Below, piece after piece: positions 985 to 40,699 of a stretch of DNA of 47,065 nucleotides (its first letter is position 1; each line of letters starts with the position of its first letter). The notes below the pieces were generated by a model. It did not search any database and was not told the DNA's origin. It was given only the letters and a program-made list of their open reading frames with translations. Origin of the DNA: Blastochloris sp. GTDB lineage: Bacteria > Verrucomicrobiota > Verrucomicrobiia > Methylacidiphilales > JAAUTS01. The translations under genes and the position numbers were made by a program. Where the stretch lies: the NCBI GenBank assembly GCA_012031345.1, contig JAAUTS010000004.1, forward strand, positions 1 to 47,065, read 5' to 3'.

Positions 985-1014
985 ATCCTTCGATCCCTAC
1001 ATCGAACCCAAGAA

Positions 1015-1042: not shown

Positions 1043-1087
1043 ATATCCCAATATCCCCCCCGAGTTGGCAGCGAAGCAGACCGCATC

Positions 1088-3737: not shown

Positions 3738-4133
3738 ATGTCAACATCCGCATTGGAAAAAGGTCTGGCTTATCTTCAACAAAACTCAAAGCGGGAGGAT
3801 GTTCACTGCACCGCCTCCGGCCTGCAATATGAAATTCTGGTGGCAGGCACAGGCCAGAGCCCGAAAGCCACGGACTCCGTGCTGGTTCACTATGAGGGAA
3901 CACTGATTGATGGAACCGTGTTTGACAGCTCTTATCGCCGCAAGCAGCCGATTGATTTTCCCCTGAACATGGTGATCGCAGGTTGGACCGAGGGGGTGCA
4001 ACTGATGCAGGAAGGGGCGAAGTTTCGTTTTACCATTCCTTCCGAACTGGCTTATGGCCGCAGCGGGGCGGGCTCGGACATCGGGCCGGACGAGACGCTG
4101 ATTTTTGATGTGGAGCTGCTCAAGGTGATGTGA
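3738..4133 (+). CDS. FKBP-type peptidyl-prolyl cis-trans isomerase
   Basis: VHYEGTLIDGTVFDSSYRR, AGWTEGVQLMQEGAKFRFTIPSELAYG, LIFDVELL. Confidence 0.92.
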   Translation: MSTSALEKGLAYLQQNSKREDVHCTASGLQYEILVAGTGQSPKATDSVLVHYEGTLIDGTVFDSSYRRKQPIDFPLNMVIAGWTEGVQLMQEGAKFRFTIPSELAYGRSGAGSDIGPDETLIFDVELLKVM

Positions 4134-4159
4134 GGAAAACGAGGTGGCGGGACAAGGTT

Positions 4160-6228: not shown

Positions 6229-6328
6229 GGGGCAATCAAGTCAGCCTCTTCGTTTCTTCCGAAATCTTGAATTAACATTTTTCTGCCACCATTGACACAG
6301 TCCACAGGGCAACGGTAATCTCTTCTGG

Positions 6329-7441: not shown

Positions 7442-7818
7442 ATCATCCTGACACCCTCCTCTACTCCGACACCCATGAATGGCTCAGCGTCCACGACGGC
7501 ATTGGCACCGTGGGCATCACCGATCACGCACAAAATGCCCTGAGCGATGTGGTTTTTGTGGAACTGCCCAAGCCGGGCAAGGTCGTGAAGCGCAAGGACC
7601 CCACGGCAGCAGTGGAAAGCGTCAAGGCCGCCTCGGATATTTATGCCCCCGTCTCCGGCGAAATTATTGAAGTGAACTCGGGCTTGAGCCAAAACCCGGA
7701 GTGGGTGAACGGTTCCCCTTACGAGCAAGGTTGGATTTTTAAAATCAAACTCAGTCAACCCGAGGAGACCAGCACCTTGAAGAAGGCCTCTGATTACGTC
7801 GCGGGCCTGGGCCACTGA
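7438..7818 (+). CDS. gcvH: glycine cleavage system H protein
   Basis: THEWLSVHDGIGTVGITDHAQNALSDVVFVELP, AAVESVKAASDIYAPVSGEI lipoyl site. Confidence 0.95.
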   Translation: MNHPDTLLYSDTHEWLSVHDGIGTVGITDHAQNALSDVVFVELPKPGKVVKRKDPTAAVESVKAASDIYAPVSGEIIEVNSGLSQNPEWVNGSPYEQGWIFKIKLSQPEETSTLKKASDYVAGLGH

Positions 7819-7846
7819 TTCCAACTCACTTCACCTCGCCACCCTC

Positions 7847-8413
7847 ATGCTCAAAAAGATCAACCCCCACCTGATCGAATGGCACAGCTACAGCCAGGAA
7901 TGCAAAGCGGATCTTCATGCCCACGCCTACATCTCCGAGGGCAAGCTTCTGCTCATTGATCCGATCCAGCCGGATGCCGCCACCCTGCAGGCCATCCAAA
8001 CTCTGGGCAAACCCTGTGCCATCCTGCTGACCAACGGCAACCATGAACGATACTCCCGCATCATCAGCGATCTGATTAAAGTTCCCATCGCCGCTCCCGC
8101 CTTTGCCATCCAGGAACTTTCTTACAAACCGGACATCGTGGTGGACGGACTCAAACAACTCCACGGCCTGGTGCCCATGGCCTTGGAGGGAGCCGGACCG
8201 GGGGAACATGCCTATTACTGCCCGGCCAACCGCATCCTGTTCATCGGCGACGCCCTCATTCACAGCACCAAAAAAGGTCTCGAACTTCTCCCAGCAAAAT
8301 ACTGCAGCAATCCCAACCAACTCAAAACCAGCCTCCGCAGTCTCTTCGACCTCAAAATTGATCTCATGGCCTTCGCCCACGGCGAGCCCTGGCCCAACCC
8401 CTGCCAGCATTAA
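7847..8413 (+). CDS. MBL-fold hydrolase-like protein
   Basis: LLIDPIQPD...ILLTNGNHERYS...ILFIGDALI resembles the metallo-beta-lactamase fold. Confidence 0.6.
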   Translation: MLKKINPHLIEWHSYSQECKADLHAHAYISEGKLLLIDPIQPDAATLQAIQTLGKPCAILLTNGNHERYSRIISDLIKVPIAAPAFAIQELSYKPDIVVDGLKQLHGLVPMALEGAGPGEHAYYCPANRILFIGDALIHSTKKGLELLPAKYCSNPNQLKTSLRSLFDLKIDLMAFAHGEPWPNPCQH

Positions 8414-8426
8414 AAAAGCTGTTATC

Positions 8427-9302
8427 ATGAAGTGTATCCGCCACTTGCCCCTGCTGCTGGGTCTCCTCCTTTGCCTAACTTCACCTTCTCTTCGCGCCGC
8501 CTCCAGTGACGATTCCCGCATCAGCGCCACACCCCAGCCCGCTCGACTCAAGACAAGCAGCGCTCCTTCCCTGGAAATTCCCGCCAACGCCCAGCGTCAG
8601 TTGAACCAATTCTTTTCCACCCTCCAGTCCGGCAACTCCAAACTCGCCTTCTTGAATCTCTTCGACAAAACCCAGTTCAAGGAAGACACCGAAATCATCG
8701 AAAACTTCATCACCGCCTCCCAAGGCTCCATCGAACGCTTCGGACCCTACAAAAAATTCGCACCCTTCGAGACCACCCGCATCGGTTCCCGACTCTACTT
8801 GCTCTCCTACATTTCGGAGCAAGGAACCAAACTCTTCCGCTGGCAATTTCTCTACTTCACCCCCATCGGCAACGAATGGCGTCTGGCCAACATCCGCGTC
8901 GATGACATGCGTGAATACATGCCCGCCCAGCCCAACCCCGTCAACCCACCCAAAGAAGTGGCTTTGAAGATAGAAAAGTTTTTCATCACCATCCAAAGCA
9001 ACCGCAGCCCGGACGCCTTTAAGGAACTCCTCACCGGTTCCAGTATTGATTCCACTGGTCCGAATGTGGACGGCTTTGTTCAGCGCACGGAGAAAGCGAT
9101 CAAGGAATACGGTGCTATGAAAAATTACGAACTTTTCGATCATCGTCCCCTCACGCCGGAATTCTCCCTGCTCATCTATTTCAGTCATCTGGAAACCGAA
9201 CCGCTCCGCTGGCACTTTTACTTTGAAACCAAAGGGGAGGCCTGGAAGCTCATCAATCTGCGCGTGGACGACTCGCTGGATGAGGGCATCCTCAACAACT
9301 GA
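8427..9302 (+). CDS. secreted hypothetical protein with two homologous domains
   Basis: Signal peptide MKCIRHLPLLLGLLLCLTSPSLRA; repeated FF.T.QS...W.F.F...W.L.N.RVDD pattern. Confidence 0.75.
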   Translation: MKCIRHLPLLLGLLLCLTSPSLRAASSDDSRISATPQPARLKTSSAPSLEIPANAQRQLNQFFSTLQSGNSKLAFLNLFDKTQFKEDTEIIENFITASQGSIERFGPYKKFAPFETTRIGSRLYLLSYISEQGTKLFRWQFLYFTPIGNEWRLANIRVDDMREYMPAQPNPVNPPKEVALKIEKFFITIQSNRSPDAFKELLTGSSIDSTGPNVDGFVQRTEKAIKEYGAMKNYELFDHRPLTPEFSLLIYFSHLETEPLRWHFYFETKGEAWKLINLRVDDSLDEGILNN

Positions 9303-9397
9303 AGATCCCGCCCTGACCCGGCCACCTGCCCTTTTTCCCTGACCTCTCCGCCGCTTTTCTGTTGGAATCCGGCACTCTGCCTGCTTATGTAGAACCC

Positions 9398-12114
<2,717 letters not shown>

Positions 12115-12143
12115 CTCGCACTGAATGAACGTCCTCCAAAGCC

Positions 12144-12527
12144 ATGAAAATCATCGCCGCAGCAGTCTTTGCCGGCCTGGGCCTGATCGCCTTGGCCATC
12201 TACTCTAAAAAAGACCCAGCCAACCCAACGATAAGTTTGCCGGAGATCAAGCAGCCATTCACCCTCGATGAAGTCAAGTTGGCGGCCCAGGAGACCCTGC
12301 ATCGTAGATACCCTGACGGCATCATCAAAGAGCAAGATTTACCAATTTATAAAATTGAGATCGATGAAGTTCGCATCAACGAAACTAAAGATACTTATCG
12401 CATCTATTATCACGTAACAAATCTTAAAGATCAGAAAAAAGCACTGGATGAAGTCGATCTGAATGGAGATTCTTTCGGTGTCTGGAAGGCATCAATTCAT
12501 GGTGTGAAGCTCGTCATGAAAGAGTAG
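12144..12527 (+). CDS. hypothetical protein with N-terminal TM segment
   Basis: MKIIAAAVFAGLGLIALAIY N-terminus; ORF only. Confidence 0.5.
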   Translation: MKIIAAAVFAGLGLIALAIYSKKDPANPTISLPEIKQPFTLDEVKLAAQETLHRRYPDGIIKEQDLPIYKIEIDEVRINETKDTYRIYYHVTNLKDQKKALDEVDLNGDSFGVWKASIHGVKLVMKE

Positions 12528-12600
12528 CTTTACAAACCTGACACGGCCTCCCCTTCCCGATCTTATTGCCGTTAAAAAAGTTTTTTGTTAAACATACCCC

Positions 12601-13224
12601 GTGCGTTCCATCCGAAATGCTTTCAGCCTGATTGAACTTTTGGTGGTTCTGGCTGTGATTATTTTGTTGTTGGGACTGCTTTTTCCCGCCGTGCAAATGG
12701 CACTGAACAAAGCCCATACCGCCAAAGCAGCCAGCAACCTTCGCCAAATCGGCATCGCCTTTCAGCTCTATCTGCAAAACAACGACAACACCATGCCGCA
12801 ACGCTTCTATCCCTCCGCTTCACCACGCACGGGTTATGATGAATTGTTGCTGCCCTACACCAATGGCGACACACAGATCTTCCAATGTCCGGCTCACAAG
12901 CAGCGCGACTATCCCTACGAGCCTTCCTACGGCATGAATTGGTATTACGACAACTGCAATGTCCTTCTGGTCACGGAGAATTCAAAAACCATTCTTGCCA
13001 CAGGCACCCTGGGCGGTGCCGGGATCGGCTCTCATCGCGCAGACCGCGATAGTGGGGATCCCGGAGTGCTGGACACTCGAAGACATCAAGGCAAGGCAAA
13101 CTACCTTTTCTTTGATGGCCATGTTGAACTGCTGAAATTTGAGCAAACCCTCAGTCCCGTGGATCTATGGGGAACCGATCACGGCATGCACGACGAACCC
13201 TTGCCTGAAACCCACAGCCCCTGA
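12601..13224 (+). CDS. type II secretion pseudopilin-like protein (DUF1559-like), GTG start
   Basis: Prepilin motif NAFSLIELLVVLAVIILLLGLLFPAV; ANYLFFDGHVE C-terminal motif. Confidence 0.85.
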   Translation: MRSIRNAFSLIELLVVLAVIILLLGLLFPAVQMALNKAHTAKAASNLRQIGIAFQLYLQNNDNTMPQRFYPSASPRTGYDELLLPYTNGDTQIFQCPAHKQRDYPYEPSYGMNWYYDNCNVLLVTENSKTILATGTLGGAGIGSHRADRDSGDPGVLDTRRHQGKANYLFFDGHVELLKFEQTLSPVDLWGTDHGMHDEPLPETHSP

Positions 13225-13255
13225 ACCACCTTCAGGCCCGGCCCCCTTATTATTC

Positions 13256-14326
13256 TCAGAATCCATCCGAACAAATCGCCAGAGCCTCACGAATCCGCTC
13301 CTCGCTAACCTCCGTCGTCAGCAGAGTCCGACCAATCTCCGGCATCAACACCCACTGAATCCCGGTGGCTCCCGCCTTCTTGTCCCGCATCAAGGCAGGC
13401 TGGACCTGTGCCAAAGTCAGCCCCGGATGGGTGATGGGTAGTCCATGATTTTTAAGGATGGTCCGAACCTTCTCCACACTCCCTTCCGCCAAGCCCGCGC
13501 AACGTTCCGACAACCAAGTCGCCGCCACCATACCGATCGAGATGGCCTCCCCGTGCAGCAATTCCCCATATCCTACCGATTGCTCGATGGCGTGACCCAG
13601 GGTGTGCCCGAAGTTCAATACTGCACGCAAGCCTGTCTCCTCCCGTTCATCTGCGGAAACAATCTCCGCCTTGATCTCCACACATCGTTTGATGATCGGG
13701 GCCAGATTCCGGGGCCGCCCCCCGGCCACCTCGGCCAACAACCCGGGATCACGGATCAATCCATACTTGATCACCTCCGCCATCCCTGCCGCCAGTTCGC
13801 GCTCCGACAGGGTTTCCAAAAAATCAAGATCTACTAACACCTGCTCCGGCTGATAAAAGGCACCGACCAGATTCTTCCCCTCCGGTAAATTCACTCCGGT
13901 CTTCCCCCCCACACTGCTGTCCACCGCCGCCAGCAAGGTGGTCGGAATTTGAATGAACCGCACTCCGCGCAGATAACTCGCCGCCAGGTAACCCGCCAGA
14001 TCTCCCACCACTCCACCTCCCACCGCCAAAACCGTGGTCTTGCGGGAGAAACGGTCCTGGGCCAAACGGGAACAGAGATCGGAAAATTGGGATAATGACT
14101 TGCTGCCCTCACCCGCAGGAACCTCGTAAACAGAGCATTTCGGGGTCAACCCGGACAGCTCTTGTCGGAGGGTCGCGAACCAGTCTTGTCGCATCACATT
14201 CCCGTCCGTGACCAAGGCAATCCCGGACTTAAAATCCAGGCCCTTGAGCGCATCCGGCAGCAGGCCCTTTCCGATGTCGATGGGATACGAACGCTCCGCT
14301 AACTGAACTACAACCCTTTCCATCAC
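13256..14326 (-). CDS. aroB: 3-dehydroquinate synthase
   Basis: GGGVVGDLAGYLAASYLRGVRFIQIPTTLLAAVDSSVGGKTGVNLPEGKN. Confidence 0.95.
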   Translation of the reverse strand: MMERVVVQLAERSYPIDIGKGLLPDALKGLDFKSGIALVTDGNVMRQDWFATLRQELSGLTPKCSVYEVPAGEGSKSLSQFSDLCSRLAQDRFSRKTTVLAVGGGVVGDLAGYLAASYLRGVRFIQIPTTLLAAVDSSVGGKTGVNLPEGKNLVGAFYQPEQVLVDLDFLETLSERELAAGMAEVIKYGLIRDPGLLAEVAGGRPRNLAPIIKRCVEIKAEIVSADEREETGLRAVLNFGHTLGHAIEQSVGYGELLHGEAISIGMVAATWLSERCAGLAEGSVEKVRTILKNHGLPITHPGLTLAQVQPALMRDKKAGATGIQWVLMPEIGRTLLTTEVSEERIREALAICSDGF

Positions 14327-14521
14327 GACAACCTAGAGAAAACCCAGCTCTTGCCAATGGCATTTACCGTGGCGAACACTTCGCCTGCTTGCTGAGGAAG
14401 AATCCTGCGCTCTCATCCCGGCGTTTCCCGCGCGCGTGAGATATGTCCTCACACTGCTTCCAATTCACGATCATGGCTCAGGCCAGACTTGCCCCCACCT
14501 GTTTTCTCAACTTGAGTGGCC

Positions 14522-14686
14522 AGAGGCTGTCTAAAAAGTGGGTGAGCTAAAATTTCAAGAGAAAATTTCGTCCGGCGAGGAGCGACGAAGGCGCCTATCC
14601 ACAAGGATACGCAACTGAGAAGCAATAACGCAGGAAGAAATTTTTCGCAGAAAGTTTGCCTTGAGCCACTTTTTTAGACAGCCTCT
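14522..14686. mobile_element. MITE-like palindromic element, about 165 bp
   Basis: Terminal inverted repeats AGAGGCTGTCTAAAAAGTGG (14522-14541) and CCACTTTTTTAGACAGCCTCT (14666-14686); interior partly palindromic, no ORF. Confidence 0.75.
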
Positions 14687-14689
14687 TAG

Positions 14690-15205
14690 ATGAAGTTCGT
14701 GCCTCGGCTTCCACTCAACCCTGCCCAGATTCAGGCCAGAATCTTTGGCTTGCTGATACTGATCGGTTTTTTGATCTTGGCCCGTTTCATCAACCCCCGG
14801 CATGGTTCGGAATTTATTCTGTCAGGCTTCAGAAGAATCACCGGCCTTCCCTGCCCCCTCTGTGGCGGCACCCGAGCCACGCATTATCTACTTCAGGGGA
14901 ACTTGGAACAAACCCTTTACTACAATTGGCTGGCCATTCCTTCCCTCCTCGTCGCCCTGATCCTCATCATATGCTGGACCGCGGAGATCATCACCCGACG
15001 CATCCTCCTTCCCCACTTCAAAGTCCCGGTAAAAGTCTGGTTTCTGGCCCTGCCCCTGCTTTTATTGGTTTGGGGAATACAAATCCACTCCGCACTGAAT
15101 CATCCCAAACCCGAACTTCTCAATGCTCGTGGGCTTTACTTTAAATTCAATTCTGGAAGCATTCCCCCACAACCACTCACTCCAACCCCGGAAGAACCTC
15201 AATAA
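14690..15205 (+). CDS. DUF2752 membrane protein
   Basis: ITGLPCPLCGGTRATHYLLQGN motif with TM segments. Confidence 0.8.
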   Translation: MKFVPRLPLNPAQIQARIFGLLILIGFLILARFINPRHGSEFILSGFRRITGLPCPLCGGTRATHYLLQGNLEQTLYYNWLAIPSLLVALILIICWTAEIITRRILLPHFKVPVKVWFLALPLLLLVWGIQIHSALNHPKPELLNARGLYFKFNSGSIPPQPLTPTPEEPQ

Positions 15206-15819
15206 TGAAACAATGGTATTACGCTCAAAATGGTGAACGCAAAGGCCCCCTTGATAAAGCCACCGTCTTGAACCTCTACCAGAACGGTCAGATCCGGGCT
15301 GATGACTTGGTTTGGGAGGAAGGCATGAGTGACTGGGTCAAGGCCTCCACCGTCTTGACCTCCACTAACATCAATACTCCAGTTCCTAACTTGAGCACCC
15401 CTGCTGGTCCCAATCCGCTCAGCCCGGACACCTCAGGGAATCTGCCCGATTATGGGGATTTCCTCTGCTGGGGCATCGCCCTGATGTTGATCCCTTGTCT
15501 CGGCTTCGCGACTTTCATCGCCCTGATTGTCTTTCACATTTTGGAACTGATCGCGGTGCGCGAAAAAGTCCAGGCAGGTCAGGCTCAAGCTAGTTCCTAC
15601 AGCAATGTTCATCCAGTCCTCATGGCTCTGGGACTTCTTTGCTGTGGCTTTATCTTCTACCCCCTTTTCATGCACTGGCGCAATGAAACCAAATTATTCA
15701 AACCCCAACCCCATGCCGTCTGGTTTTCCATCGTCATTTTGGGCATCGTCCTCATCCTCTGGACTTCCTTGCAATTCTTAAATGCCTTCATGAACCTCTC
15801 CTCCCTCAACAACCTCTAA
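15205..15819 (+). CDS. GYF_2/DUF4339-domain membrane protein
   Basis: MKQWYYAQNGERKGPLDK...GQIRADDLVWEEGMSDWVKA N-terminal domain plus TM helices. Confidence 0.8.
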   Translation: MKQWYYAQNGERKGPLDKATVLNLYQNGQIRADDLVWEEGMSDWVKASTVLTSTNINTPVPNLSTPAGPNPLSPDTSGNLPDYGDFLCWGIALMLIPCLGFATFIALIVFHILELIAVREKVQAGQAQASSYSNVHPVLMALGLLCCGFIFYPLFMHWRNETKLFKPQPHAVWFSIVILGIVLILWTSLQFLNAFMNLSSLNNL

Positions 15820-15834
15820 CACCCCTTGCCCAAA

Positions 15835-16350
15835 ATGAAGCGATGGTTCTACGCCCGCAACTCCGAACGCATCGGTCCCGTCGATGCCTCGGTTCTGCGT
15901 GAACTGTTTGCCGCAGGTCAAATCCGACCGGATGACCTTGTTTGGGAAGAGGGCATGAAAGATTGGGTCAAAGCGGGTGATGCCCTCCCCTCTCTCAACC
16001 AGCCTCCTCCGGAAATCCCCGTCGCAACTCCTAACCAAGCTTGGCCCGACCCTCAGGTCCACCCCTATCCAGCCCAGGCCCGTGACTCCTCCCTGGCTAT
16101 CGTATCCTTGGTTTCCGGCATCATCAGTCTGGTCACCTTTATTTTTTGTTGTGGAATATTGGGCCTCGTGCCCATCGTCACCGGACATCTCGCACTTCGG
16201 GAAATCCGGGATCAACCCGGACTCTCCGGTAAAGGTATGGCTCAGGCAGGTCTCATCATGGGTTACATTTCCCTCTCGATCACCGTCCTTATTATTCTGT
16301 TCTATGGAATCATCTTCGCCATCGGCCTCTCTTCAGAACTCAACAAATAA
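15835..16350 (+). CDS. GYF_2 domain + DUF4190-like membrane protein
   Basis: MKRWFYARNSERIGPVD...GQIRPDDLVWEEGMKDWVKA; C-term SLAIVSLVSGIISLVTF...GHLALREIR. Confidence 0.82.
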   Translation: MKRWFYARNSERIGPVDASVLRELFAAGQIRPDDLVWEEGMKDWVKAGDALPSLNQPPPEIPVATPNQAWPDPQVHPYPAQARDSSLAIVSLVSGIISLVTFIFCCGILGLVPIVTGHLALREIRDQPGLSGKGMAQAGLIMGYISLSITVLIILFYGIIFAIGLSSELNK

Positions 16351-16357
16351 CGCCACC

Positions 16358-17371
16358 ATGTTTCCTGACTCCAGACTTCCTGACCCCAAACCGCTTCGTC
16401 GTCCCCGTCGTAATCGCCGCAGCGAAGGTCTCCGCACTGCCCTGCGCGAAACCCACCTGGGCCTGCAACATCTGGTTACCCCTCTTTTTGTCAAAGAAGG
16501 ACTGAGCCAACCCGAACCCATCGATTCCCTCCCTGGGATCTTCAGATTTTCCCCCGACGCACTGCTCCACGAAATCGAGAGACTTCATGGCCTGGGCCTC
16601 AGCACCTTCGCCCTCTTCCCTTGTCTCCCCCCGGAAAGCAAAGACCTGGAAGCTTCGGAAGCACTGAACCCTGACAATCTCATCAACCGCTGCCTGCGCC
16701 GCATCAAAACCTCCCTGCCCGGAGTTACTCTGATCAGTGATGTCGCCCTCGATCCCTACACCACACATGGGCACGATGGCATCCTCGACCCTTCCGGTAA
16801 CGTGGCCAACGACGCTACGGTGACCATCCTGGCCCGCATGGCTCTGCTGCAAGCCCAGGCCGGAGTCGATTACGTCGCGCCCTCCGACATGATGGATGGC
16901 CGTGTCCGTGCCATCCGTCATACCCTCGACCTCGCAGGTCACGAATCAACCGGCATCCTGGCCTACTCCTCCAAATTTGCCTCCGCCTACTACGGACCTT
17001 TCCGGGACGCCGTTGGCAGCCGCGTTTCCGGCTCCTACTTGGATAAACGCAGCTATCAACTCGATCCCGCCAACTCACGGGAAGCCCTGCTCGAAGCCCT
17101 GCTGGATGAGGAGGAAGGAGCCGACATTCTTATGGTCAAACCGGCCGGACTTTATCTGGATATCCTCAGCAAGCTACGCCAAAAGACATTGCTCCCCTTG
17201 GCTGCCTATCAAGTCTCAGGAGAATACGCTCAAATCCACGCCGCCGCCCAAAACGGCTGGCTTGACCTGAAACAAGCCCGTGACGAATCCCTCCTCGCCA
17301 TCCGCCGGGCCGGAGCCGATCTCATTTTCAGCTACTTTGCCCCCGCCATCGCGGCGGAATCTTCTATCTAA
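16358..17371 (+). CDS. hemB: delta-aminolevulinic acid dehydratase
   Basis: LVTPLFVKEG, DVALDPYTTHGHDGI, DYVAPSDMMDGRVRAIR, ADILMVKPAGLYLDI. Confidence 0.95.
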   Translation: MFPDSRLPDPKPLRRPRRNRRSEGLRTALRETHLGLQHLVTPLFVKEGLSQPEPIDSLPGIFRFSPDALLHEIERLHGLGLSTFALFPCLPPESKDLEASEALNPDNLINRCLRRIKTSLPGVTLISDVALDPYTTHGHDGILDPSGNVANDATVTILARMALLQAQAGVDYVAPSDMMDGRVRAIRHTLDLAGHESTGILAYSSKFASAYYGPFRDAVGSRVSGSYLDKRSYQLDPANSREALLEALLDEEEGADILMVKPAGLYLDILSKLRQKTLLPLAAYQVSGEYAQIHAAAQNGWLDLKQARDESLLAIRRAGADLIFSYFAPAIAAESSI

Positions 17372-17439
17372 AAAGCGGCAGCTGCCCATCGTTATTTTCG
17401 CGCCCGAAATTGGTTGTTTGCAGCTGATATGCAGCTTGT

Positions 17440-20253
17440 ATGGCAAATCTTTTGATTTATGTTTATTGGATGCGTTCAAGTCGGTTTCACTTCTTGCCAT
17501 TCTGGAAAATTCTACTCTGCTCCGTCCTCTTCTACCCCATATTCTGCCCGGCAGAAACGACCACCAATCTGCTGCGTAACGGCAGCTTCGAGGGCTCCCT
17601 TCTCTATTGGAATGGTCAAAATAAAAAGGAAGTCGTCGAAGGCGGTAAATTTGGAAAATACGCTTTTAAGATGACCGGCGACTGGTCTCTCAGCGCCCCC
17701 ATTCCCATGGAGCGCGATGCCGTTTACACCATCACACTCTGGGCCAAACTTGCTACGGAAGGCAACAATGTCCTCCAATTCGGTATGCGTCCCATGGCCC
17801 GCGAACATGAGGTCAGGCCAACACGTCTCTCCGAGCCACCTCCCAAGGGCGGCTTTCCGCTCACGACCGAATGGCAACGTTTCTCCGCCACCTTTAAAGC
17901 GGATTGTCCACGTCACGGCATGTGGCCGCTTCCCCACTACGGAATCAGTCTGGACAGCAACGATGATCGCACCCCGATTCTTATTGATGGCGTGACCGTG
18001 ACCAAGGGAGATCAACCCGCCGCCACTTATCTCCCCCGCAGTCCGATTGAAGTCACCATCCTTCCCACCAATTTGCCAGGCTATCGCGGAGCAGCGGGAA
18101 ACATGTACAAAAAAGGGGCCACGGCCACCCTGGATGCCCTTCTGCACAATCCCGGCGATCAGGCCCGGGAAGTCCTGGCCCGCTGGCAACTCATGGATTA
18201 CGAGGGCAGCGTTCCTTTGGCGGAGCCTGTGGACACCAAGATCAAAATCGCTCCCGGTGCCACGATCAAGGTTCCAGCCACCCTGCCCTTGAGTGCCAAC
18301 GGAACCGTCCTGGCTCGTTGTAGCATCCTCGATAGTTCTGGTAAGGTTCTGGATTCCTCCCACATTCCGCTCACTTCCCTGCCTTACGAAAAAGCCGCCA
18401 CTCAACCCAACTACGAGGAACGTTTCGGCGGCTCCTTCGCCGGTGGTGTGGAGTGTCTGGACCGGATGCAACGCATCGGCTTTGGCTGGACCCGTTGGTG
18501 GGCCAACAACAAGTGGCATGATTACGAACCGGAAGAAGGAAAATTTGACTGGTCCATGGACAAGCAACAACAAGCCTGGGACCGTGGCATCTCCAATCAC
18601 ATCGTCCTATACGGCTGGCCCAAATGGATCATGGACCAGGATCATCCCCTGCCCAGGGACATGCGCTGGCCGGCGGAGGATCCACGCTGGGAGGATCTCA
18701 GCGTGGTCACGGCCTGGGATCGCTTCGTCAAAGCCGCAGTCGAAAACTTTCGTGGCAAGTCGGTTGTCTTTCAAATCGCCAACGAACCCGGTCATGACCA
18801 GTGGAAAAAAGGTTGGATCAAGGAGTATGTGAAATTCAACCAACGCACCGCCAGGTTGATCAAACAAACCGACCCCAAGGCACGCGTCTCAGTCAACAAT
18901 GTTTATCTTAACCCCAGTCCTGATAACGCCGCCCTGCTCGGAGCGAAGGATTTCAAAAATTTCGATGTCTGGTCCTGGCACGACTACCATGCGGGCTGGT
19001 TGGGAGACGCCGTCACCATGAAGCGCATGCACTCCATGCTCGCGGAGGCCGGGGGCAAACACCTTGAAGTTTGGTTCACCGAGGGTTGGGCCTTCACCAA
19101 TACCTTGGTGGATCAACCCATCGCCTGCACCAGCTTGACCAGTGTCGAAAGCACCCACGCCATCATGAACTCCGTGGCGGAATTGACCGCCAATGGCCAT
19201 GATAAAATGGTTCTTTTCCATCTCATGTATGGCACCCATGGCATGAGCTTCTGGGATTACAGCGGCCCCGGAGTGATGCTCTGGGATTGGTATGACTATC
19301 CCACCGCCTTGGTCGGTGCCTGGAATGTCATCAACCATCACATCGGCCTCAGCCGGCAAGTGGGTTTTGTCCGTCCTCCCGGCGCCAATTTCTGCATCTT
19401 CACCGACCTTCGCAACAACCGCGGCGTCATGATCGCCTTCGCAGACCGTAATGCCAAAAATGACGTGGTCATCGACTTGCCCTTGAGCGGACTGACGGCG
19501 GAGGACCTTCAAGCCAATCCCGTTCAGATGGATGGAACCAAACTCACGCTGAAGGCCTCCGGCCGTCCCGTCATCCTCTACACCGCCACCGGAGGCAAGG
19601 GCGAGGATCTCCTGCCCAAACTCGAACCTCTGGATCGCAAACATCTCGGTTTTGTTAGTGCGGGTGAGGGCCAGACCAAAATCTATCGACTACCCGACGT
19701 CTGGGATGGCGTGGAAAAGAAAAGCAGCAAAGGCAACCCCGTGCTCAACGGAGACCAACCCATTTGGCGCGTGGACCGACTTTATCCTAACGACCCCATC
19801 ATGCCCGCCAACTACAGCCCCATGGTCTGGGGCAACCAACGCTGGGAGGCACCTGACTACTCCCAAGGCGGACATCCCAGCGTCACTTTAAAAGATGGCC
19901 TCGTCAGCATGGGCACGCTCGGACCATGGAACGGTAAGGACACCAATTTTAAAAAACAGCCCGCCCTCGTCTTTATTGTCCCGGAGAGCGGAGTGTATCA
20001 GATCCAATTCACCGCCCACTCCGATCCCTGGGGCGGAACCAAAGCGGATGCCTTCCTCTATCTCATGAAACGTGATGAACAGCGCGTTGGTGAATTGAAA
20101 AAAATTACCCTCAAAGCCGACCAAACCCCGATCAAATTTGAACTGGAGCTGGATGCCGCCTCAGGGCATGAAATCGTGATTCTGAGCGAGATGCCCAATC
20201 ACAACGGCTCAACCAACGTGATCTTAAAAGATCTCAGCATCACGAAAAAGTGA
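17440..20253 (+). CDS. secreted glycoside hydrolase-like protein (GH clan A type TIM barrel, N-terminal CBM-like region)
   Basis: Signal peptide; NLLRNGSFEGSLLYW; FQIANEPGHDQW (acid/base Glu) and LEVWFTEGW (candidate nucleophile). Confidence 0.75.
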   Translation: MANLLIYVYWMRSSRFHFLPFWKILLCSVLFYPIFCPAETTTNLLRNGSFEGSLLYWNGQNKKEVVEGGKFGKYAFKMTGDWSLSAPIPMERDAVYTITLWAKLATEGNNVLQFGMRPMAREHEVRPTRLSEPPPKGGFPLTTEWQRFSATFKADCPRHGMWPLPHYGISLDSNDDRTPILIDGVTVTKGDQPAATYLPRSPIEVTILPTNLPGYRGAAGNMYKKGATATLDALLHNPGDQAREVLARWQLMDYEGSVPLAEPVDTKIKIAPGATIKVPATLPLSANGTVLARCSILDSSGKVLDSSHIPLTSLPYEKAATQPNYEERFGGSFAGGVECLDRMQRIGFGWTRWWANNKWHDYEPEEGKFDWSMDKQQQAWDRGISNHIVLYGWPKWIMDQDHPLPRDMRWPAEDPRWEDLSVVTAWDRFVKAAVENFRGKSVVFQIANEPGHDQWKKGWIKEYVKFNQRTARLIKQTDPKARVSVNNVYLNPSPDNAALLGAKDFKNFDVWSWHDYHAGWLGDAVTMKRMHSMLAEAGGKHLEVWFTEGWAFTNTLVDQPIACTSLTSVESTHAIMNSVAELTANGHDKMVLFHLMYGTHGMSFWDYSGPGVMLWDWYDYPTALVGAWNVINHHIGLSRQVGFVRPPGANFCIFTDLRNNRGVMIAFADRNAKNDVVIDLPLSGLTAEDLQANPVQMDGTKLTLKASGRPVILYTATGGKGEDLLPKLEPLDRKHLGFVSAGEGQTKIYRLPDVWDGVEKKSSKGNPVLNGDQPIWRVDRLYPNDPIMPANYSPMVWGNQRWEAPDYSQGGHPSVTLKDGLVSMGTLGPWNGKDTNFKKQPALVFIVPESGVYQIQFTAHSDPWGGTKADAFLYLMKRDEQRVGELKKITLKADQTPIKFELELDAASGHEIVILSEMPNHNGSTNVILKDLSITKK

Positions 20254-32414: not shown

Positions 32415-32501
32415 GGACAGGTGGCTGAGTGGCCGAAGGCACTCGACTCGAAATCGAGCGACGTTTAATCGCGTCCGTGGGTTCAAATCCCACCCTGTCC
32501 G
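32415..32501 (+). tRNA. tRNA-Ser(CGA)
   Basis: ggacaggtggctgagtggccgaaggcactcgactcgaaatcgag + long variable arm + gggttcaaatccc + cctgtccG. Confidence 0.93.
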
Positions 32502-32707: not shown

Positions 32708-33847
32708 ATGCAGGAACGTTACTGGCTCTACCGCCGCGACAACGGCGTGTATTACTTGCAAGACCGCAAAAACGGCAAACAGCAAAGCCTCAAGACGAAG
32801 GACAGGGCGGAGGCCAAGCGTCTGGCCGCCGGACGCAACCAGGCCGAGCAAATGCCCGCCCTCAACCTGGCCATGGCCCGGACCTATCTCCTGGCCAAAT
32901 CGCCCCAGATGGTCACGCGGACCTGGGGAGATGTCATGAAGGACAAGGAGGCGCAATACGCCCACGCCGGGGCCAATTCCACGCTGAAACGCTGGCAAAA
33001 GGTCTGCCGCAGCAAGCCATGGTCCGTGCTGCATGCCCTGCCTCTGGTGGAAACCGAGCCGGATCATTTCCTGTCAGTCCTGCGCCATCCGGATTCGGGT
33101 TCCTCCACCAACGTCTGGCTGCGCATCCTACACAATTACGCACTGGACATGAGTTGGCTTCTGGCGGCGGTCCTCCCCAAAAAGCGGTGGCCCAAAATCC
33201 ACTACAAGGAAAAGCGAGGCATCACGGAGGACGAACACCGCTCCATCCTGGCCCTGGCCGTGGAAGGGACCGAAGAAGCGGCCTACTATGAACTGCTCTG
33301 GGAAACGGGCGGCTCGCAAACCGACATCGCCAGCCTCGACGACACCCGGATCGATTGGGACCAGCGCAGCATCCTCTACCGGAGGATGAAAACGCAGAAC
33401 CGGGGCTATGAGTTCGCCAAGGTGCGTCTGGGGTCGCGGCTCATCGCCCTCCTGGAGGGCCTTCCCAAGCAAGGCCCACTCCTGCCCACCCTGGCGGCCA
33501 TGAGCCTGGAAAACCGGGCCAAGCTGTTCCGGAGGCGGGTGCGGGCACTGGGCCTCAAAGACATCAGCCTGCACTGCTACCGCTACGCCTGGGCGGAACG
33601 GGCGAGGAAAGCGTAAGTGCCCCTGCGCGTGGCCATGGAAACCCTGGGCCACCGCAGCCGAGCCGTGCATCAAGCCTACGCCAAGAAAGTCGAGGTCGAC
33701 CTCATGCCCCTGGAATACTACGAGCGCAAAGCGGCCGAAAACATCGTGGACTTCCAAAAATACGCTCCGCCCGCGGCGGAAGCGCGGTTGGCAGCGGTGC
33801 CCTTGAAAGGAGACAAACACCGGCAAATCGTCTCATCCACTATCTGA
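32708..33847 (+). pseudogene. tyrosine recombinase/phage-type integrase interrupted by in-frame TAA at about 33614-33616
   Basis: LHCYRYAWAERARKA*VPLRVAMETLGHRSRAVHQAYAKKV; both halves in one frame; adjacent to tRNA-Ser. Confidence 0.8.
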
Positions 33848-34588: not shown

Positions 34589-34615
34589 TTCAGACCGGGC
34601 CGCGCAGATCGCGCA
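34589..34615 (+). repeat. 27-bp direct repeat, copy 1 (left flank of cassette)
   Basis: TTCAGACCGGGCCGCGCAGATCGCGCA. Confidence 0.9.
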
Positions 34616-34900
34616 TCTGGGGCGATGAGGCTGATTTGGATGGGGGCCAGGTGTTTCCGTGTGTCGTGAACGCGTTTTCCAGTGGTTAAAACCAAGCCTC
34701 AATCTTCAAGCGGTCACGAGGGCTGAAATCCCGCAGAAGAACCTAATCGCTAGCGTCAACATCCCCAATTGACCCCTGCTTGGCGTCGTGTCAGAGTTGA
34801 CACTCAATCGAATCCAATCTCGTATCCTTGCCGCTGCTCGACGCGCTGCTGCCAAAGGTGCTGAGTGGAGAGCTAAACGTGGGCGGAATTTCAAACTGAA

Positions 34901-36730
34901 TTGAACATGAAATTACTCAGTATAAAGCTCCACAACTTCCGAGGCATACTCGAACAAGAGGTGCAGTTCCACTCATATAGCCTCTTGGTTGGTCCCAACA
35001 ATGCGGGCAAGAGCACGTTCATTGATGGCATCCGCGCGTTCTACGAAAAGGACGGTTTCAAATTCAAAACTGACAAGGATTTCCCATTCTCGAAAACCGC
35101 TGATGATGAGTCTTGGGCCGAACTTAATTTCCGGCTGGCTGATGACGAACATGCCTCGTTAAAAGAAGAGTATCAGGTCACTGACAAGACGCTACGAGTC
35201 CGAAAACTCTTTCAGACAAAGGAGAAGGGTGCAGCAGGCTTCATCTACGCTTACAAGAACGACGGAACGCTATCCAGGGACCCGTTCTACGGCGCAAAGA
35301 ATGTTCAGAGTGGAAAGTTCGGCGATCTCATCTACATCCCAGCAGTCAGTAAGGTCGACGAGCACACCAAGCTGACTGGACCTTCGGCATTGCGAGATCT
35401 CCTTACCGATGTGATGTCTGATGTCGTTGAAGGCGGAAAGGCATACGGTGAATTTGCCGCCAGCGTTGAAACCTTTGCCTCAACGATCTTGAAGGAGAAG
35501 ACGAAGGACGACCGCTCCCTTGAGGGATTTCAGGAGTCGTTTAATAAGCTACTCGAACCTTGGCAGACAAAGTTTGCCCTTCGATTTCCTCCGCCTTCGG
35601 CGGCCGACATCATCAAGCAGATGGTCAATTGGGATTTGCTTGATGAGTTTCACGGTAAACCGCAAGGCGTCGATTACTACGGCTCGGGCTTTCAACGGCA
35701 CTTCATCTACTCACTGATTCAACTCGGAGCACAATACATTGGAAAGAAGGCTGCGAAGAAGGCCAAGGATTTTGTTCCTTCTCTAACTCTAATTCTCTTT
35801 GAAGAGCCGGAGGCATTTCTTCATCCGCCACAGCAGGAGGTTCTTGCCCGAAGCCTGGTGGCGATGGCCAACAAAGACAGTTGGCAGGTTGTATGCACCA
35901 CTCACTCGTCACATTTCGTAAGCCGGAATGCTGACTCCATCCCCGCGATTGTGCGCGTCATGCGCACTGGCGGAAATGTGGAGTCATTCCAAATTAAAGA
36001 TGCTGACTGGTCGGTGATCGTGGCTGCCAACAAAGCCATCGAGGCAATCGTAGCCAAGTATCCCAATATGCAGAAGAAACTGCACGCGGACGACATTCGG
36101 GCTGAGATGGAGGTTGTTAAGTACTTTCTTTGGCTAAATTCAGACCGATCCGGGATTTTCTTCGCCAACCATGCCATCCTGGTCGAAGGCCCGACTGAGG
36201 TTGCACTCATTAACAAGCTCATTGACGACGGAAAAATCAGCGGGGCGGACTGTGGACTCCAAATTCTGGACTGCCTCGGAAAATACAATATCCATCGGTT
36301 TATGAATCTACTTGGTCATCTCGGGATTGCCCACTCGGTTATTCACGATGACGATAACAACAAGGACGAGCATGCAGACTTGAACCAACTCATCCAAAGT
36401 TCAAAGCACGGGAGTCTGACTCATTCAATTCATGCTATTGCGACAGACCTTGAGACCTTCTTAAACATTCCTTCGCCAGGCTCTGACCACCGCAAACCAC
36501 AGCATGTTCTTTATCTCTACTCCGAGGGAAAAATTGATGCAGGTAAACTGGGCGCATTCTGCTCAGTTGTAGAAGGCTGCCTGCCAAAGCTTGCATTGGC
36601 AGCAGCTGCGCCTAAAGCCCCAGCCGGAACCCCTCCCCGCTGCCATTTCATAAACATGACCCTCACCGAGCCCATCGTCGAAGATGCCGCCCTGACGTGG
36701 TTCGTAGAGGCTGGTCCATATGGTCGTTAG
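34901..36730 (+). CDS. OLD-family ATP-dependent endonuclease (AAA ATPase + TOPRIM; GajA-like)
   Basis: Walker A VGPNNAGKST, LILFEEPEAFLHP, CTTHSSHFVS, TOPRIM ILVEGPTEVALI and VIHDDDNNKDEH. Confidence 0.9.
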   Translation: MNMKLLSIKLHNFRGILEQEVQFHSYSLLVGPNNAGKSTFIDGIRAFYEKDGFKFKTDKDFPFSKTADDESWAELNFRLADDEHASLKEEYQVTDKTLRVRKLFQTKEKGAAGFIYAYKNDGTLSRDPFYGAKNVQSGKFGDLIYIPAVSKVDEHTKLTGPSALRDLLTDVMSDVVEGGKAYGEFAASVETFASTILKEKTKDDRSLEGFQESFNKLLEPWQTKFALRFPPPSAADIIKQMVNWDLLDEFHGKPQGVDYYGSGFQRHFIYSLIQLGAQYIGKKAAKKAKDFVPSLTLILFEEPEAFLHPPQQEVLARSLVAMANKDSWQVVCTTHSSHFVSRNADSIPAIVRVMRTGGNVESFQIKDADWSVIVAANKAIEAIVAKYPNMQKKLHADDIRAEMEVVKYFLWLNSDRSGIFFANHAILVEGPTEVALINKLIDDGKISGADCGLQILDCLGKYNIHRFMNLLGHLGIAHSVIHDDDNNKDEHADLNQLIQSSKHGSLTHSIHAIATDLETFLNIPSPGSDHRKPQHVLYLYSEGKIDAGKLGAFCSVVEGCLPKLALAAAAPKAPAGTPPRCHFINMTLTEPIVEDAALTWFVEAGPYGR

Positions 36731-36757
36731 CAATACTTCTTCAATTTTCAATAATCG

Positions 36758-37687
36758 ATGAGCGCTTTATTCATGGATTATAACGAGCGAGTCGTTTGTG
36801 AGATTTCTCACAACCCTCCGATTTTCGGGTTGGGAAGCGAGGGGTATGCGGTCCTTGTGGTTCAGCCCAGGATGACATTGCGAGGTCCGAAAGCAGCCAA
36901 GCACGGCTATTCTTTTAAGAACTTCCAGTGCAAACTTTCTCCTTTTGATGGCGTTTATTTGACATCCAATCCTTTGGTGAAACTAGACAATCTTTTGGGA
37001 GCTGGAGAGGAGTTTGCGAATCAGGTCCAGATCGAGTTTCCGATTTCCCGAGAGAATCTGGAACGTGTTGAATCAATGAGGAAATCAGGCGACGTCCGCT
37101 TTCGCCTGGATCTGTATCTCTCGTTTGATGAATTGGTCCAATTGGGTTCTACGCCAGAACTTGGGCATGAAAGCCCGATTTGGGGGCTCAAACGCCACTG
37201 CTCGACATCAGCTCAGGTATCCCTGCACATTCCCCGTTCGGACTGGATTGAGCGAATTCTGCCGCAGTTCCAGTTAGACCGCGTTCACCTAATCGAGATT
37301 CCTGCCATTCCCTTAAAGGAAGTCGCTAATTTTCAGGCTTCATTCGAAGCGCTGAAAGAAGCCCAAGAGCATCATAAGCAGGGCTTTTTCAATGCTGCGG
37401 TCATGAATTGTCGGCAGGCTTTGGAAAAATTGATGGATTCTCAAATGGAAATTGTGGTTAAGAGTGAGAAGAAAAAAGTCCCTGCTTTGAATGAACGATG
37501 GAAACGGAAATTGGGCGAATCCACCTATCGTTGGCTGAATGAGGCATTTGCGGCTTTGAAGACCGTGAGTAATGACGCGTCGCATCGGAACAGAGACAAT
37601 TTTGATCAGTTTGAGTCCCAGATGATCCAGGCAATCACTTTGTGCTTGATTGCCTACGCGGCAAGAAATGAGCCTGGGGCGGAGTAG
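36758..37687 (+). CDS. hypothetical protein with beta-rich N-terminus and HEPN-like helical C-terminus
   Basis: SDWIERILPQF...LIEIPAIPL followed by HHKQGFFNAAVMNCRQALEKLMD...NDASHRNRD; 27 nt downstream of the OLD gene. Confidence 0.65.
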   Translation: MSALFMDYNERVVCEISHNPPIFGLGSEGYAVLVVQPRMTLRGPKAAKHGYSFKNFQCKLSPFDGVYLTSNPLVKLDNLLGAGEEFANQVQIEFPISRENLERVESMRKSGDVRFRLDLYLSFDELVQLGSTPELGHESPIWGLKRHCSTSAQVSLHIPRSDWIERILPQFQLDRVHLIEIPAIPLKEVANFQASFEALKEAQEHHKQGFFNAAVMNCRQALEKLMDSQMEIVVKSEKKKVPALNERWKRKLGESTYRWLNEAFAALKTVSNDASHRNRDNFDQFESQMIQAITLCLIAYAARNEPGAE

Positions 37688-37833: not shown

Positions 37834-37860
37834 TTCAGACCGGGCCGCGCAGATCGCGCA
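37834..37860 (+). repeat. 27-bp direct repeat, copy 2 (right flank of cassette)
   Basis: TTCAGACCGGGCCGCGCAGATCGCGCA, identical to 34589-34615. Confidence 0.9.
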
Positions 37861-38188
37861 CAGGACGCGGCCTGCTCGGGCTGGAGGTTTCCGTAGTTGT
37901 TGCCGGCATGGAAGTGGGGGCAGATGGTGGTGAAGCCGTGTTTTTGCCGATGGCCATGTCCTGACGCCGCCGCTTGATCTCGGCGGAGTATCGGCGGCAG
38001 AAGCGCCGGACCGTGTGTGGGGACACGGTGACCCCGCTGTCTTGCAGCATGTCGGCGATGGCGTCGTAGCTGGCCTCCTTGGCGCGCAGCAGGATCACGG
38101 CATCATGATGGGGTTCGAGGATCGATGGCCGTTGGGCCATCTGATAATCCGCTGCCATCTGGGCGACCTGGGCTTGAACATCGTTCAT
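37835..38188 (-). CDS. small helix-turn-helix protein, possibly associated with mobile element
   Basis: EPHHDAVILLRAKEASYDAIADMLQDSGVTVSPHTVRRFCRRY HTH-like; C-terminus RDLRGPV* lies in the 27-bp repeat. Confidence 0.65.
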   Translation of the reverse strand: MNDVQAQVAQMAADYQMAQRPSILEPHHDAVILLRAKEASYDAIADMLQDSGVTVSPHTVRRFCRRYSAEIKRRRQDMAIGKNTASPPSAPTSMPATTTETSSPSRPRPVRDLRGPV

Positions 38189-38462: not shown

Positions 38463-40699
38463 GTGCGACAAGATAGGAGGAAAAGGAATTGTTCTATGTA
38501 GAAAGTTAGAAACTTGAACAAGGGAACCTGCGATTCCGTTCGCAGTAGCCTACTGGCATTTGCTGGACTGGTAACGGTCTGGTGAAAAGCTGCCAGGACA
38601 ACATACTTCCGCCTTCGGGCAGGGGGATTTCCGCGAGGAAAGCCCCTGGATTCCCAGTGTCAGGGAATCGGAAGGTCAGGCTGGAGGACAAGCCCAACAC
38701 AAGTGAACTGCCGCAGATACCGTCACTCCCAAGGAGCCAAAGACGCTGACAGGCTCTGACCAAAAGGTGCGCAGCCGGTTGTTTCCCTCTGACACTGGGA
38801 ACACACGGACTTACGGCTGCCGGTATGAGAGGCAGGGGCTAAACCCTCCGTGTTCCTTTCCTTCAACTTGGTAAACCCGTCATTCCGCCCCGGGTGGGGC
38901 AGGCGCGCCGCAAGGCCCGCTGTTGGAATGGTGGGCAGAGGATGTTGGAAAAAGCGAAAGCCGCCCCGTAATCGGGCGGACAGGGGTTGAAAGATCACCC
39001 TGCCGCGCAAGCGGGCTGACTTCCAACGGGTCGATGATGACGAGAAAACCATGCAAAACCATCCCAGGAAGAAATCGCAAATGAACGCGGGTCAAACCGC
39101 GTGTGCCTCTTCCGGCAAGGCGGGAATGTGGGACCAGATCAACTGGCCCCGCCATGACCGCCAAGTCAGGCGGTTGCAGGCGCGTATCGTCAAGGCAACA
39201 CGGGAAGGCCGTCATCACAAGGTGAAAGCCTTGCAATGGCTGCTGACCCACTCTTTTGGGGGCCGTGCCTTGACCGTCAAACGGGTGACAGAAAACAAAG
39301 GCAAACGAACCCCCGGAGTGGATGGCGCCCTCTGGCAGACTCCGGCGGGCAAGTTCACCGCCATCCAATCGCTGCGGCGGCGGGGCTATCAACCCCAGCC
39401 TCTGCGGCGGGTCCACATTCCGAAAGCCAATGGGAAGCTGCGGCCCCTGGGCATACCGACGATGAAAGACCGGGCCATGCAGGCTCTGCACCTGCTGGCG
39501 CTGGCCCCCATCGCGGAAACCACGGGTGACCCCAACTCCTACGGCTTCCGGCCTGCCCGTTGCACGGCGGACGCCATCGAGCAGTGCCACAATGTCTTGT
39601 CCAAGAGGGTTTCCCCTCTTTGGGTATTGGAAGGGGACATTCGAGGCTGTTTTGATCACATCAGCCATGAATGGATGCTGCGCCACATCCCCACGGACAA
39701 GGCGGTATTGCGCCGCTGGCTCCAGGCAGGGTTCGTGGAACATCAATCCTTCTTCCCCACGGAAGCAGGGACACCGCAAGGAGGCATCATCTCGCCGACA
39801 TTGGCGAATATGACTCTGGATGGATTGGAAGCCCTTCTGAAGACCGCTTTTCGCAAGCGGTACGGCAGGAAGGCATTCCATCCGAAGGTGAACCTGATCC
39901 GGTATGCGGACGACTTCATCATCACCGGCAGCTCGAGAGAGTTGCTGGAAAACGAGGTTCGTCCGGTGGTGGAGCGGTTCCTTGGGGATCGGGGTTTGCT
40001 CCTCTCCCCTGAGAAAACCTGCGTCACCTCGGTGGAAGACGGGTTCGACTTCCTCGGGCAGCACCTGCGGAAACGAAAAGGAAAACTGCTGGTGCAACCC
40101 TCCAAGAAGAACACGCATCAATTCCTGGAAAAGGTACGGGCAGTCCTTCGTAAGAACCAAAGTGTGACTCAGGAAAACTTGATCTGGACGCTCAACCCAA
40201 TCCTCCGGGGTTGGGTGAACTACCACCGCCATTGTGCGGCCAAGAAGTCCTTCAAGAAAGTGGACGCGGTGATCTGGCGTTGTCTCTGGCAGTGGGCCAA
40301 GCGCAGGCATCCCGGCAAATCGCGGCGCTGGGTTCTCCGGAAATACTGGAAACCATGGCGGCGCAACAGCTGGAGGTTTGCGACAGAAACCAAGGAATGG
40401 AAACCCGACGGAAAGCCGGTCCTGCTCCAGTTGGTCAGCATCAACTCAGCCAGGATCGAGCGCCACTGGAAGGTCAAAGGGGATGCCAATCCCTACGACC
40501 CCCAGTGGCAGCCGTATTTTGAGGATCATGCGTTCCTCAGAAAATACGGGTTCCCCCGCCACGAGATCAGTGAAAATCGATCGTGTTGACCGGCCCTGCT
40601 CACGCAGGGCTTTGCCATCGGCTTGAGCCGGATGAAGGGAAACTTTCAAGTCCGGTTCTTAGGGGAGGAGACGGCGGCAACGCCGTCTCCTTACCCGAC
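38463..40699 (+). mobile_element. group II intron (ribozyme + IEP)
   Basis: 5' GTGCGACAAGATAGG; domain V gagccggatgaagggaaactttcaagtccggttc (about 40625-40658); domain VI and ...ttacccgac at 3' end. Confidence 0.85.
39051..40589 (+). CDS. ltrA: group II intron reverse transcriptase/maturase
   Basis: RVHIPKANGKLRPLGIPTMKDRAMQ, SYGFRPARCTADAI, GTPQGGIISP, IRYADDFIITG, ILRGWVNYHRH maturase X. Confidence 0.95.
   Translation: MQNHPRKKSQMNAGQTACASSGKAGMWDQINWPRHDRQVRRLQARIVKATREGRHHKVKALQWLLTHSFGGRALTVKRVTENKGKRTPGVDGALWQTPAGKFTAIQSLRRRGYQPQPLRRVHIPKANGKLRPLGIPTMKDRAMQALHLLALAPIAETTGDPNSYGFRPARCTADAIEQCHNVLSKRVSPLWVLEGDIRGCFDHISHEWMLRHIPTDKAVLRRWLQAGFVEHQSFFPTEAGTPQGGIISPTLANMTLDGLEALLKTAFRKRYGRKAFHPKVNLIRYADDFIITGSSRELLENEVRPVVERFLGDRGLLLSPEKTCVTSVEDGFDFLGQHLRKRKGKLLVQPSKKNTHQFLEKVRAVLRKNQSVTQENLIWTLNPILRGWVNYHRHCAAKKSFKKVDAVIWRCLWQWAKRRHPGKSRRWVLRKYWKPWRRNSWRFATETKEWKPDGKPVLLQLVSINSARIERHWKVKGDANPYDPQWQPYFEDHAFLRKYGFPRHEISENRSC

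What the first reader, a model, noticed from the sequence alone, without database searches (positions are those of the whole stretch)
34901..37687. Two-gene OLD-nuclease + HEPN-like cassette: candidate undescribed anti-phage system
Seen: an AAA ATPase-TOPRIM protein (GPNNAGKST; LILFEEPEAFLHP; ILVEGPTEV; HDDDNNKDE) followed after 27 nt, same strand, by a 309-aa protein whose C-terminus looks like a HEPN-type helical bundle. Known: OLD-family GajA works with a UvrD-like helicase GajB in Gabija, and other OLD proteins act in Lambda-P2 exclusion and retron systems. No helicase is present here; the partner is a different protein. Inference: sensor/nuclease plus effector pair. The cassette looks lower in GC than its flanks and sits in a tRNA-proximal island.
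Basis: partly seen in the sequence, partly recalled or inferred. Interest (0 to 1): 0.78.

Follow-up and report, generated by a model that had tools for sequence, protein, structure and literature searches.

The report
Two defence genes from dismantled restriction locus
An OLD-type nuclease gene and a poorly known second gene sit side by side, but both look like separate defence cargo left over from a broken type I restriction-modification operon, so they are probably not one matched two-gene anti-phage system.

Summary
Both genes are real and intact. The first (ATG 34907-36730) is an OLD-family ABC-ATPase/TOPRIM nuclease with all catalytic residues, closest to class 1 (single-gene) OLDs. The second, 'P2' (36758-37687), belongs to a rare family absent from PADLOC, with an N-terminal beta-sandwich and a C-terminal helical region only weakly like DUF4145/HEPN; the HEPN RNase motif is not met. 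The two-gene-system idea is not supported. The 3' end of an hsdS gene lies just before OLD, and OLD's odd C-terminal tail is the 5' end of an hsdR gene: the order is hsdS'-OLD-hsdR'-P2. An 89%-identical OLD in another family of the class has the same scars and no P2; shared DNA ends at the scar. OLD relatives at 48%, 43% and about 35% also lack P2. Of five intact P2 genes only this one is next to an OLD; two others lie between hsdS and hsdR (near PDC-M31 and a PARIS AriAB fusion), one in a defence-rich region, one alone. Most likely OLD and P2 are separate type I R-M-embedded modules left together. New points: an R-M-embedded OLD lineage, an unnamed R-M-associated family, and repeated hsdS'/hsdR' scars around cargo.

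The parts
32415..32501 (+). tRNA-Ser (CGA), upstream end of the region
   Evidence: ARAGORN; Rfam
32708..33847 (+). tyrosine-recombinase (integrase) gene with an in-frame stop at 33614-33616; reading frame continues through a LGHRSRAVHQAYAKK motif
   Evidence: weak Phage_integrase/DUF6538 match; translation
34589..34615 (+). left copy of an exact 27-bp direct repeat bracketing the hsdS'-OLD-hsdR'-P2 segment
   Evidence: only two copies found in the genome by BLAST
34816..34899 (+). hsdS 3' remnant (...LLDALLPKVLSGELNVGGISN*)
   Evidence: HMM of three HsdS C-termini: 22.7 bits, E 5.7e-6, next window hit 0.38; best hit in 639 kb of control DNA 10 bits; same scar before the 89%-identical OLD
34907..36730 (+). 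OLD-family ABC-ATPase + TOPRIM nuclease (K35; E427, D455, D481, D483 in ATG numbering); OLD-homologous part ends about residue 565
   Evidence: dN/dS about 0.05 against the 89% orthologue
36656..36727 (+). hsdR 5' remnant read in frame as the C-terminal tail of the OLD ORF (MTLTEPIVEDAALTWF...)
   Evidence: DNA alignment to the hsdR' scar after the G091 OLD (E 1e-17) and to a second hsdR' in that locus (8e-8); protein HMM alone weak, 11.5 bits
36758..37687 (+). P2: 309-aa protein, N-terminal beta-sandwich, C-terminal helical DUF4145/HEPN-like region with invariant N272-x3-H276
37834..37860 (+). right copy of the 27-bp direct repeat, at the 3' end of a minus-strand HTH ORF (37835-38188)

Best explanation
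The pair is a junction of two separate type I R-M-embedded cargo genes left behind after the R-M core was lost. The OLD gene is a class-1-like, self-contained ATPase/TOPRIM nuclease that once lay between hsdS and hsdR. P2 is a second R-M-associated cargo gene joined 3' of an hsdR fragment. Inferred mechanism: OLD acts on its own as a back-up to restriction. The ATPase dimer holds the TOPRIM nuclease inactive until infection (for example DNA ends, a nucleotide change, or an anti-restriction or anti-RecBCD protein) releases it to cut phage DNA or a host tRNA. P2 is an independent accessory, most likely a nucleic-acid- or protein-binding adaptor built on a HEPN-like scaffold rather than a canonical HEPN RNase. 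Shown here: gene identities, intact catalytic residues, hsdS' and hsdR' scars, the separate occurrence of each gene, and purifying selection on OLD. Inferred: the trigger, the target and the role of P2.
For: OLD identity. hsdS' before OLD. hsdR' at the end of OLD. G091 carries an 89%-identical OLD with the same hsdS' and hsdR' scars but no P2; shared DNA is window 34816-36726 only. G156: hsdM-hsdS-OLD-hsdR, no P2. P2 elsewhere: L003 hsdM-hsdS-P2-PDC-M31A-PDC-M31B-hsdR; L104 hsdM-hsdS-...-AriAB-hsdR'-P2-DUF4268-...-hsdR; L014 in a defence-rich region and L002 alone, both without OLD. dN/dS of OLD about 0.05. Single-gene OLDs are known (PMC10568477, PMC13261556); defence genes between hsdS and hsdR are known (PMC12255303, PMC11411939).
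Against: The two genes are only 27 nt apart and could be co-transcribed. The three P2 genes in R-M loci all have an ABC-ATPase module nearby (3/3 against 4/40 random hsdS loci of the class; Fisher p 0.003, or 0.017 leaving the window out), which hints at a functional link. The window's hsdR' is short, and its protein-level score alone is weak. No function was measured.
Confidence: 0.66

Rival explanations
1. A true two-gene OLD + P2 defence system: P2 is the dedicated sensor or effector of this OLD, in the way GajB is of GajA.
For: Same strand, 27 nt apart, both intact, lower GC than the flanks, bracketed together by a 27-bp repeat.
Against: No second OLD-P2 pair in any of the (partly overlapping) genome samples or collection scans searched with either gene; the 89% orthologue has no P2; an hsdR fragment lies between the genes; each gene has other contexts.
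Confidence: 0.13
2. P2 is a promiscuous accessory of ABC-ATPase/TOPRIM modules (OLD, PARIS AriAB, PDC-M31) in type I R-M loci, regulating whichever such nuclease it lands beside.
For: All three P2 genes in R-M loci have such a module within one to two genes, against 4 of 40 random hsdS loci.
Against: Only three loci; gene order differs (P2 before M31A, after AriAB with an hsdR' between); two other P2 genes have no such module beside them; M31B is TOPRIM-like only by a short motif; both gene types prefer the hsdS-hsdR slot, which alone can bring them together.
Confidence: 0.16
3. A decaying island: remnants without function, carried along after the R-M locus broke down.
For: hsdS and hsdR are reduced to fragments, the integrase has an in-frame stop, OLD reads on into an hsdR fragment, and a group II intron sits next door.
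Against: Both ORFs are open over 609 and 309 codons, catalytic residues are kept and OLD shows dN/dS about 0.05, although that measures the lineage and not only the time since the break.
Confidence: 0.15

Closest known systems
Class 1 OLD nucleases (phage P2 Old; Thermus scotoductus OLD 6P74; E. coli YbjD/OldB)
   Same: N-terminal ABC ATPase and C-terminal TOPRIM with the conserved acidic residues; acts as one gene; best PDB match is T. scotoductus OLD, P2 Old is 24% identical over 90%.
   Different: Class 1 is described as single genes not next to other defence genes (PMC10568477); this lineage lies in type I R-M loci between hsdS and hsdR, or their remnants.
Gabija (GajA-GajB)
   Same: GajA is an OLD-family protein of the same domain plan.
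   Different: No UvrD-like helicase here; GajA models score far lower than Old.
Defence genes embedded in type I R-M operons (RloA/RloB = AbiLi/AbiLii, DarTG2, TgvAB, PrrC)
   Same: Same slot between hsdS and hsdR; the host genome itself has hsdM'-hsdS-AbiLi-AbiLii on another contig.
   Different: Here the R-M core around the cargo is gone and only hsdS' and hsdR' scars remain.
DUF4145-like HEPN proteins
   Same: Weak DUF4145 match over residues 201-280; DUF4145 genes are known in operons with R-M (PMC3710099).
   Different: Below the Pfam cut-off, only one of the members checked matches, no R in the Rx4-6H positions in the window copy, distinct N-terminal beta-sandwich.

Membership tests
OLD-family nuclease (class 1) | ABC ATPase with Walker A and signature/Walker B plus C-terminal OLD-type TOPRIM (E, DxD) | tested here: met
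   Pfam AAA_15 and OLD-like_TOPRIM above cut-off; invariant K35, E427, D455, D481, D483 in five homologues
OLD-family nuclease (class 1) | single gene, no helicase or reverse-transcriptase partner | tested here: met
   relatives stand without a fixed partner; the nearby RT is a group II intron maturase
OLD-family nuclease (class 1) | isolated from other defence genes | tested here: not met
   closest relatives and this copy lie at type I R-M loci or remnants
[quoted passage not shown]
   the downstream gene P2 has no helicase match
Class 3 OLD (retron) | retron reverse transcriptase and ncRNA next to OLD | tested here: not met
   neighbouring RT has RVT_N and GIIM domains and group II intron RNA
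PARIS | AriA ATPase plus DUF4435 AriB | tested here: not met
   TOPRIM is OLD-type and no DUF4435 match in the window pair; an AriAB fusion is near P2 only in L104
DUF4145/HEPN | curated profile score | tested here: inconclusive
   21.9 bits against cut-off 23.1; no DUF4145 match in L002, L003 or L104 members
HEPN RNase | Rx4-6H catalytic motif | tested here: not met
   N-x3-H is invariant in five members but the positions for R are S/V/T in the window copy; only L002 has Rx6H in register
type I R-M-embedded cargo | lies between hsdS and hsdR | tested here: met
   hsdS' before and hsdR' after OLD in the window; hsdS and hsdR flank the homologues in G156, L003 and L104. In the window P2 itself has an R-M scar only on its 5' side.
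any anti-phage system | protection against phage | not testable with these tools
   needs plaque assays

The most novel reading that the evidence does not exclude
P2 founds a new family of type I R-M-embedded accessory proteins that control ABC-ATPase/TOPRIM nucleases of several kinds (OLD, PARIS, PDC-M31), and these modules are swapped between R-M loci by recombination at the conserved hsdS 3' and hsdR 5' ends, leaving scars.
Probability: 0.18. Interest if true: 0.7.

Novelty: new variant of a known kind. Interest (0 to 1): 0.42.

Why it matters
It shows how close spacing in a defence island can imitate a two-gene system: an hsdR fragment between the genes and an orthologue without the partner give it away. 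It also puts an OLD lineage inside type I R-M operons, where class 1 OLDs are not expected, and suggests that hsdS 3' ends and hsdR 5' ends act as joints for cargo exchange. That can be tested by counting scars across R-M loci and would help guilt-by-embedding searches separate partners from neighbours.

Tried and rejected
P2 in plasmid, phage and viral collections: no homologue. PDB sequence search with the P2 alignment: nothing convincing. Fold search of the P2 model: only low-TM matches of the beta-sandwich to Ig/LEA/ApaG-like folds. Separate fold of the C-terminal domain: pLDDT 52 and no significant match, so it neither supports nor excludes HEPN. tRNA-Ser 3' end as a second attachment site in the window: none (a 14-base near-match at 41092 is within chance). 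tblastn of the 29-aa hsdS remnant against plasmids: no match, query too short for that search, hence the profile test with controls. The HTH ORF at 37835-38188 has no plasmid match. Consensus promoter scan: not above shuffles. A retron reading was rejected because the RT is a group II intron maturase.

Full report
1. Observation. Both ORFs exist as described. The first is an OLD-family protein: AAA_15 6e-30, OLD-like TOPRIM 9e-17, PADLOC Old 4e-61 against GajA 4e-31, best solved relative T. scotoductus OLD, 24% identical to phage P2 Old over 90% of its length. Walker A K35 and TOPRIM E427, D455, D481 and D483 (numbered from ATG 34907) are invariant in five homologues. The second gene, called P2 here (no relation to phage P2), has a borderline DUF4145 match and no PADLOC match. 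GC is 0.49-0.53 in the pair and about 0.6 on both sides. tRNA-Ser lies 2.4 kb upstream.

2. Where the genome belongs. No taxonomy is given, but the class sample around the window's genome and that around the genome of L003, titled 'uncultured Verrucomicrobia subdivision 3 bacterium', share genomes with identical hit coordinates. The window is therefore from Verrucomicrobiota; the order is not established.

3. Remnants of a type I R-M operon. Just before OLD the plus strand reads ...LLDALLPKVLSGELNVGGISN-stop, the usual end of HsdS. A profile from three other HsdS C-termini finds it with E 5.7e-6, next window hit 0.38; in 639 kb of control DNA the best score is 10 bits against 22.7 here. The last ~24 residues of the OLD ORF, MTLTEPIVEDAALTWF..., have no counterpart in other OLDs and match the start of HsdR. 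The protein score alone is weak (11.5 bits), but the DNA aligns with a clear hsdR 5' fragment directly after the orthologous OLD of G091 (E 1e-17, with the OLD tail included) and with a second hsdR 5' fragment in that locus (8e-8). The order is hsdS'-OLD-hsdR'-P2.

4. OLD without P2. G091, in another family of the class, has an OLD 89% identical over about 566 residues, preceded by hsdS' and followed by hsdR', with no P2 in the 16 kb read. Shared DNA covers window 34816-36726 and stops at the scar, before P2. In G156 a 48% homologue lies between hsdS (split in two ORFs) and hsdR, overlapping hsdR by 4 nt, with no P2. G087 (43%), plasmid relatives at 35-37% and two viral contigs (one of them ends inside the gene) also show no P2. 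OLD is under purifying selection: dN 0.062, dS 1.16 between window and G091 (dS is near saturation).

5. P2 without OLD. Five intact members were found, all in Verrucomicrobiota as far as named. L003: hsdM-hsdS-P2-PDC-M31A-PDC-M31B-hsdR, P2 overlapping the hsdS stop. L104 (G788): hsdM-hsdS-CBASS cyclase and 2TM effector-AriAB (PARIS fusion)-hsdR fragment-P2-DUF4268 (PDC-S11)-...-hsdR. L014 (G377): P2 followed by an overlapping 168-aa gene, near QueC-like, SMC-like and DUF4365 genes. L002: alone among housekeeping genes, with a helical minus-strand neighbour. Degraded pieces occur in G120 and G693. P2 was not found in plasmids, phages or viral contigs.

6. Is there a partner rule? In 40 hsdS loci drawn from the class, 4 contain an OLD/AAA ATPase by an iterated OLD profile. 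All three P2 genes in R-M loci have an ATPase/TOPRIM module near: Fisher p 0.003, or 0.017 without the window, which was chosen for it. This is suggestive, not decisive: numbers are small, the detector is imperfect, order and spacing differ, and a shared insertion slot can produce it.

7. P2 itself. A model from three sequences has mean pLDDT 72 with a well-predicted N-terminal beta-sandwich and a poor C-terminal helical part. Fold matches are low in TM-score, to Ig/LEA/ApaG-like sandwiches. The C-terminal domain alone gives pLDDT 52 and nothing significant. N272-x3-H276 is invariant in five members; R is absent at the Rx4-6H positions in the window copy and present in register only in L002. 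HEPN families lacking R but keeping H are known (PMC3710099), so a HEPN relation is possible and canonical RNase activity unlikely.

8. Mechanism. Class 1 OLDs work as single genes; P2 Old is reported to sense RecBC inhibition and cut a host tRNA, and E. coli YbjD gives phage phenotypes alone (both from PMC13261556). Genes between hsdS and hsdR are recognised embedded defences (DarTG2, PMC12255303; TgvAB, PMC11411939), and PrrC shows how an embedded nuclease backs up restriction (described in PMC3710099). By analogy this OLD is most likely an autonomous back-up nuclease. That is inference.

9. Scars as a pattern. Besides the window, G091 has one hsdS' and two hsdR' fragments; L104 has three hsdS' fragments and two hsdR' fragments beside the full genes, one of them an hsdR'-hsdS' hybrid (4957-5319); L109, L140 and L147 have extra HsdS-C-terminus-like fragments. 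Recombination at these conserved ends would explain cargo exchange. Searches of the open literature held here found the hsdS-hsdR site called a potential recombination hotspot (PMC12255303) but not these scars; absence from this library does not show novelty.

10. Verdict. The genes are real and defence-associated; the two-gene system is improbable. New variant of a known kind, interest 0.42.

Noticed in passing
window 38527-40699 (+): Complete group II intron: Rfam D1-D4-7 match at 38527-38675, Intron_gpII match at 40623-40699, and a 512-aa RT/maturase ORF at 39051-40589.
   Followed up: partly
window 32708-33847 (+): Tyrosine recombinase next to tRNA-Ser with an in-frame TAA at 33614-33616 between the catalytic boxes; either a pseudogene or a sequencing error.
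   Followed up: partly
window 34589-34615 and 37834-37860: Exact 27-bp direct repeat bracketing the low-GC segment, only these two copies found in the genome; the right copy forms the 3' end of a minus-strand HTH ORF. Possibly recombination sites.
   Followed up: partly
L019 (own genome, contig C21) 101-3711: The same genome carries hsdM'-hsdS-AbiLi(RloA)-AbiLii(RloB), another type I R-M locus with an embedded ATPase/TOPRIM pair.
   Followed up: yes
L104 (G788) 89-17451: Stack of defence genes between hsdS and hsdR: CBASS cyclase and 2TM effector, PARIS AriAB, P2, DUF4268, RmrA-like HTH, PIN-like, HipA-like, with repeated hsdS' and hsdR' fragments between them.
   Followed up: partly
L002 5968-6687 (-): Helical protein with an RNCLVH motif (a canonical HEPN Rx4H) next to the solitary P2 homologue; no Pfam match.
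   Followed up: no
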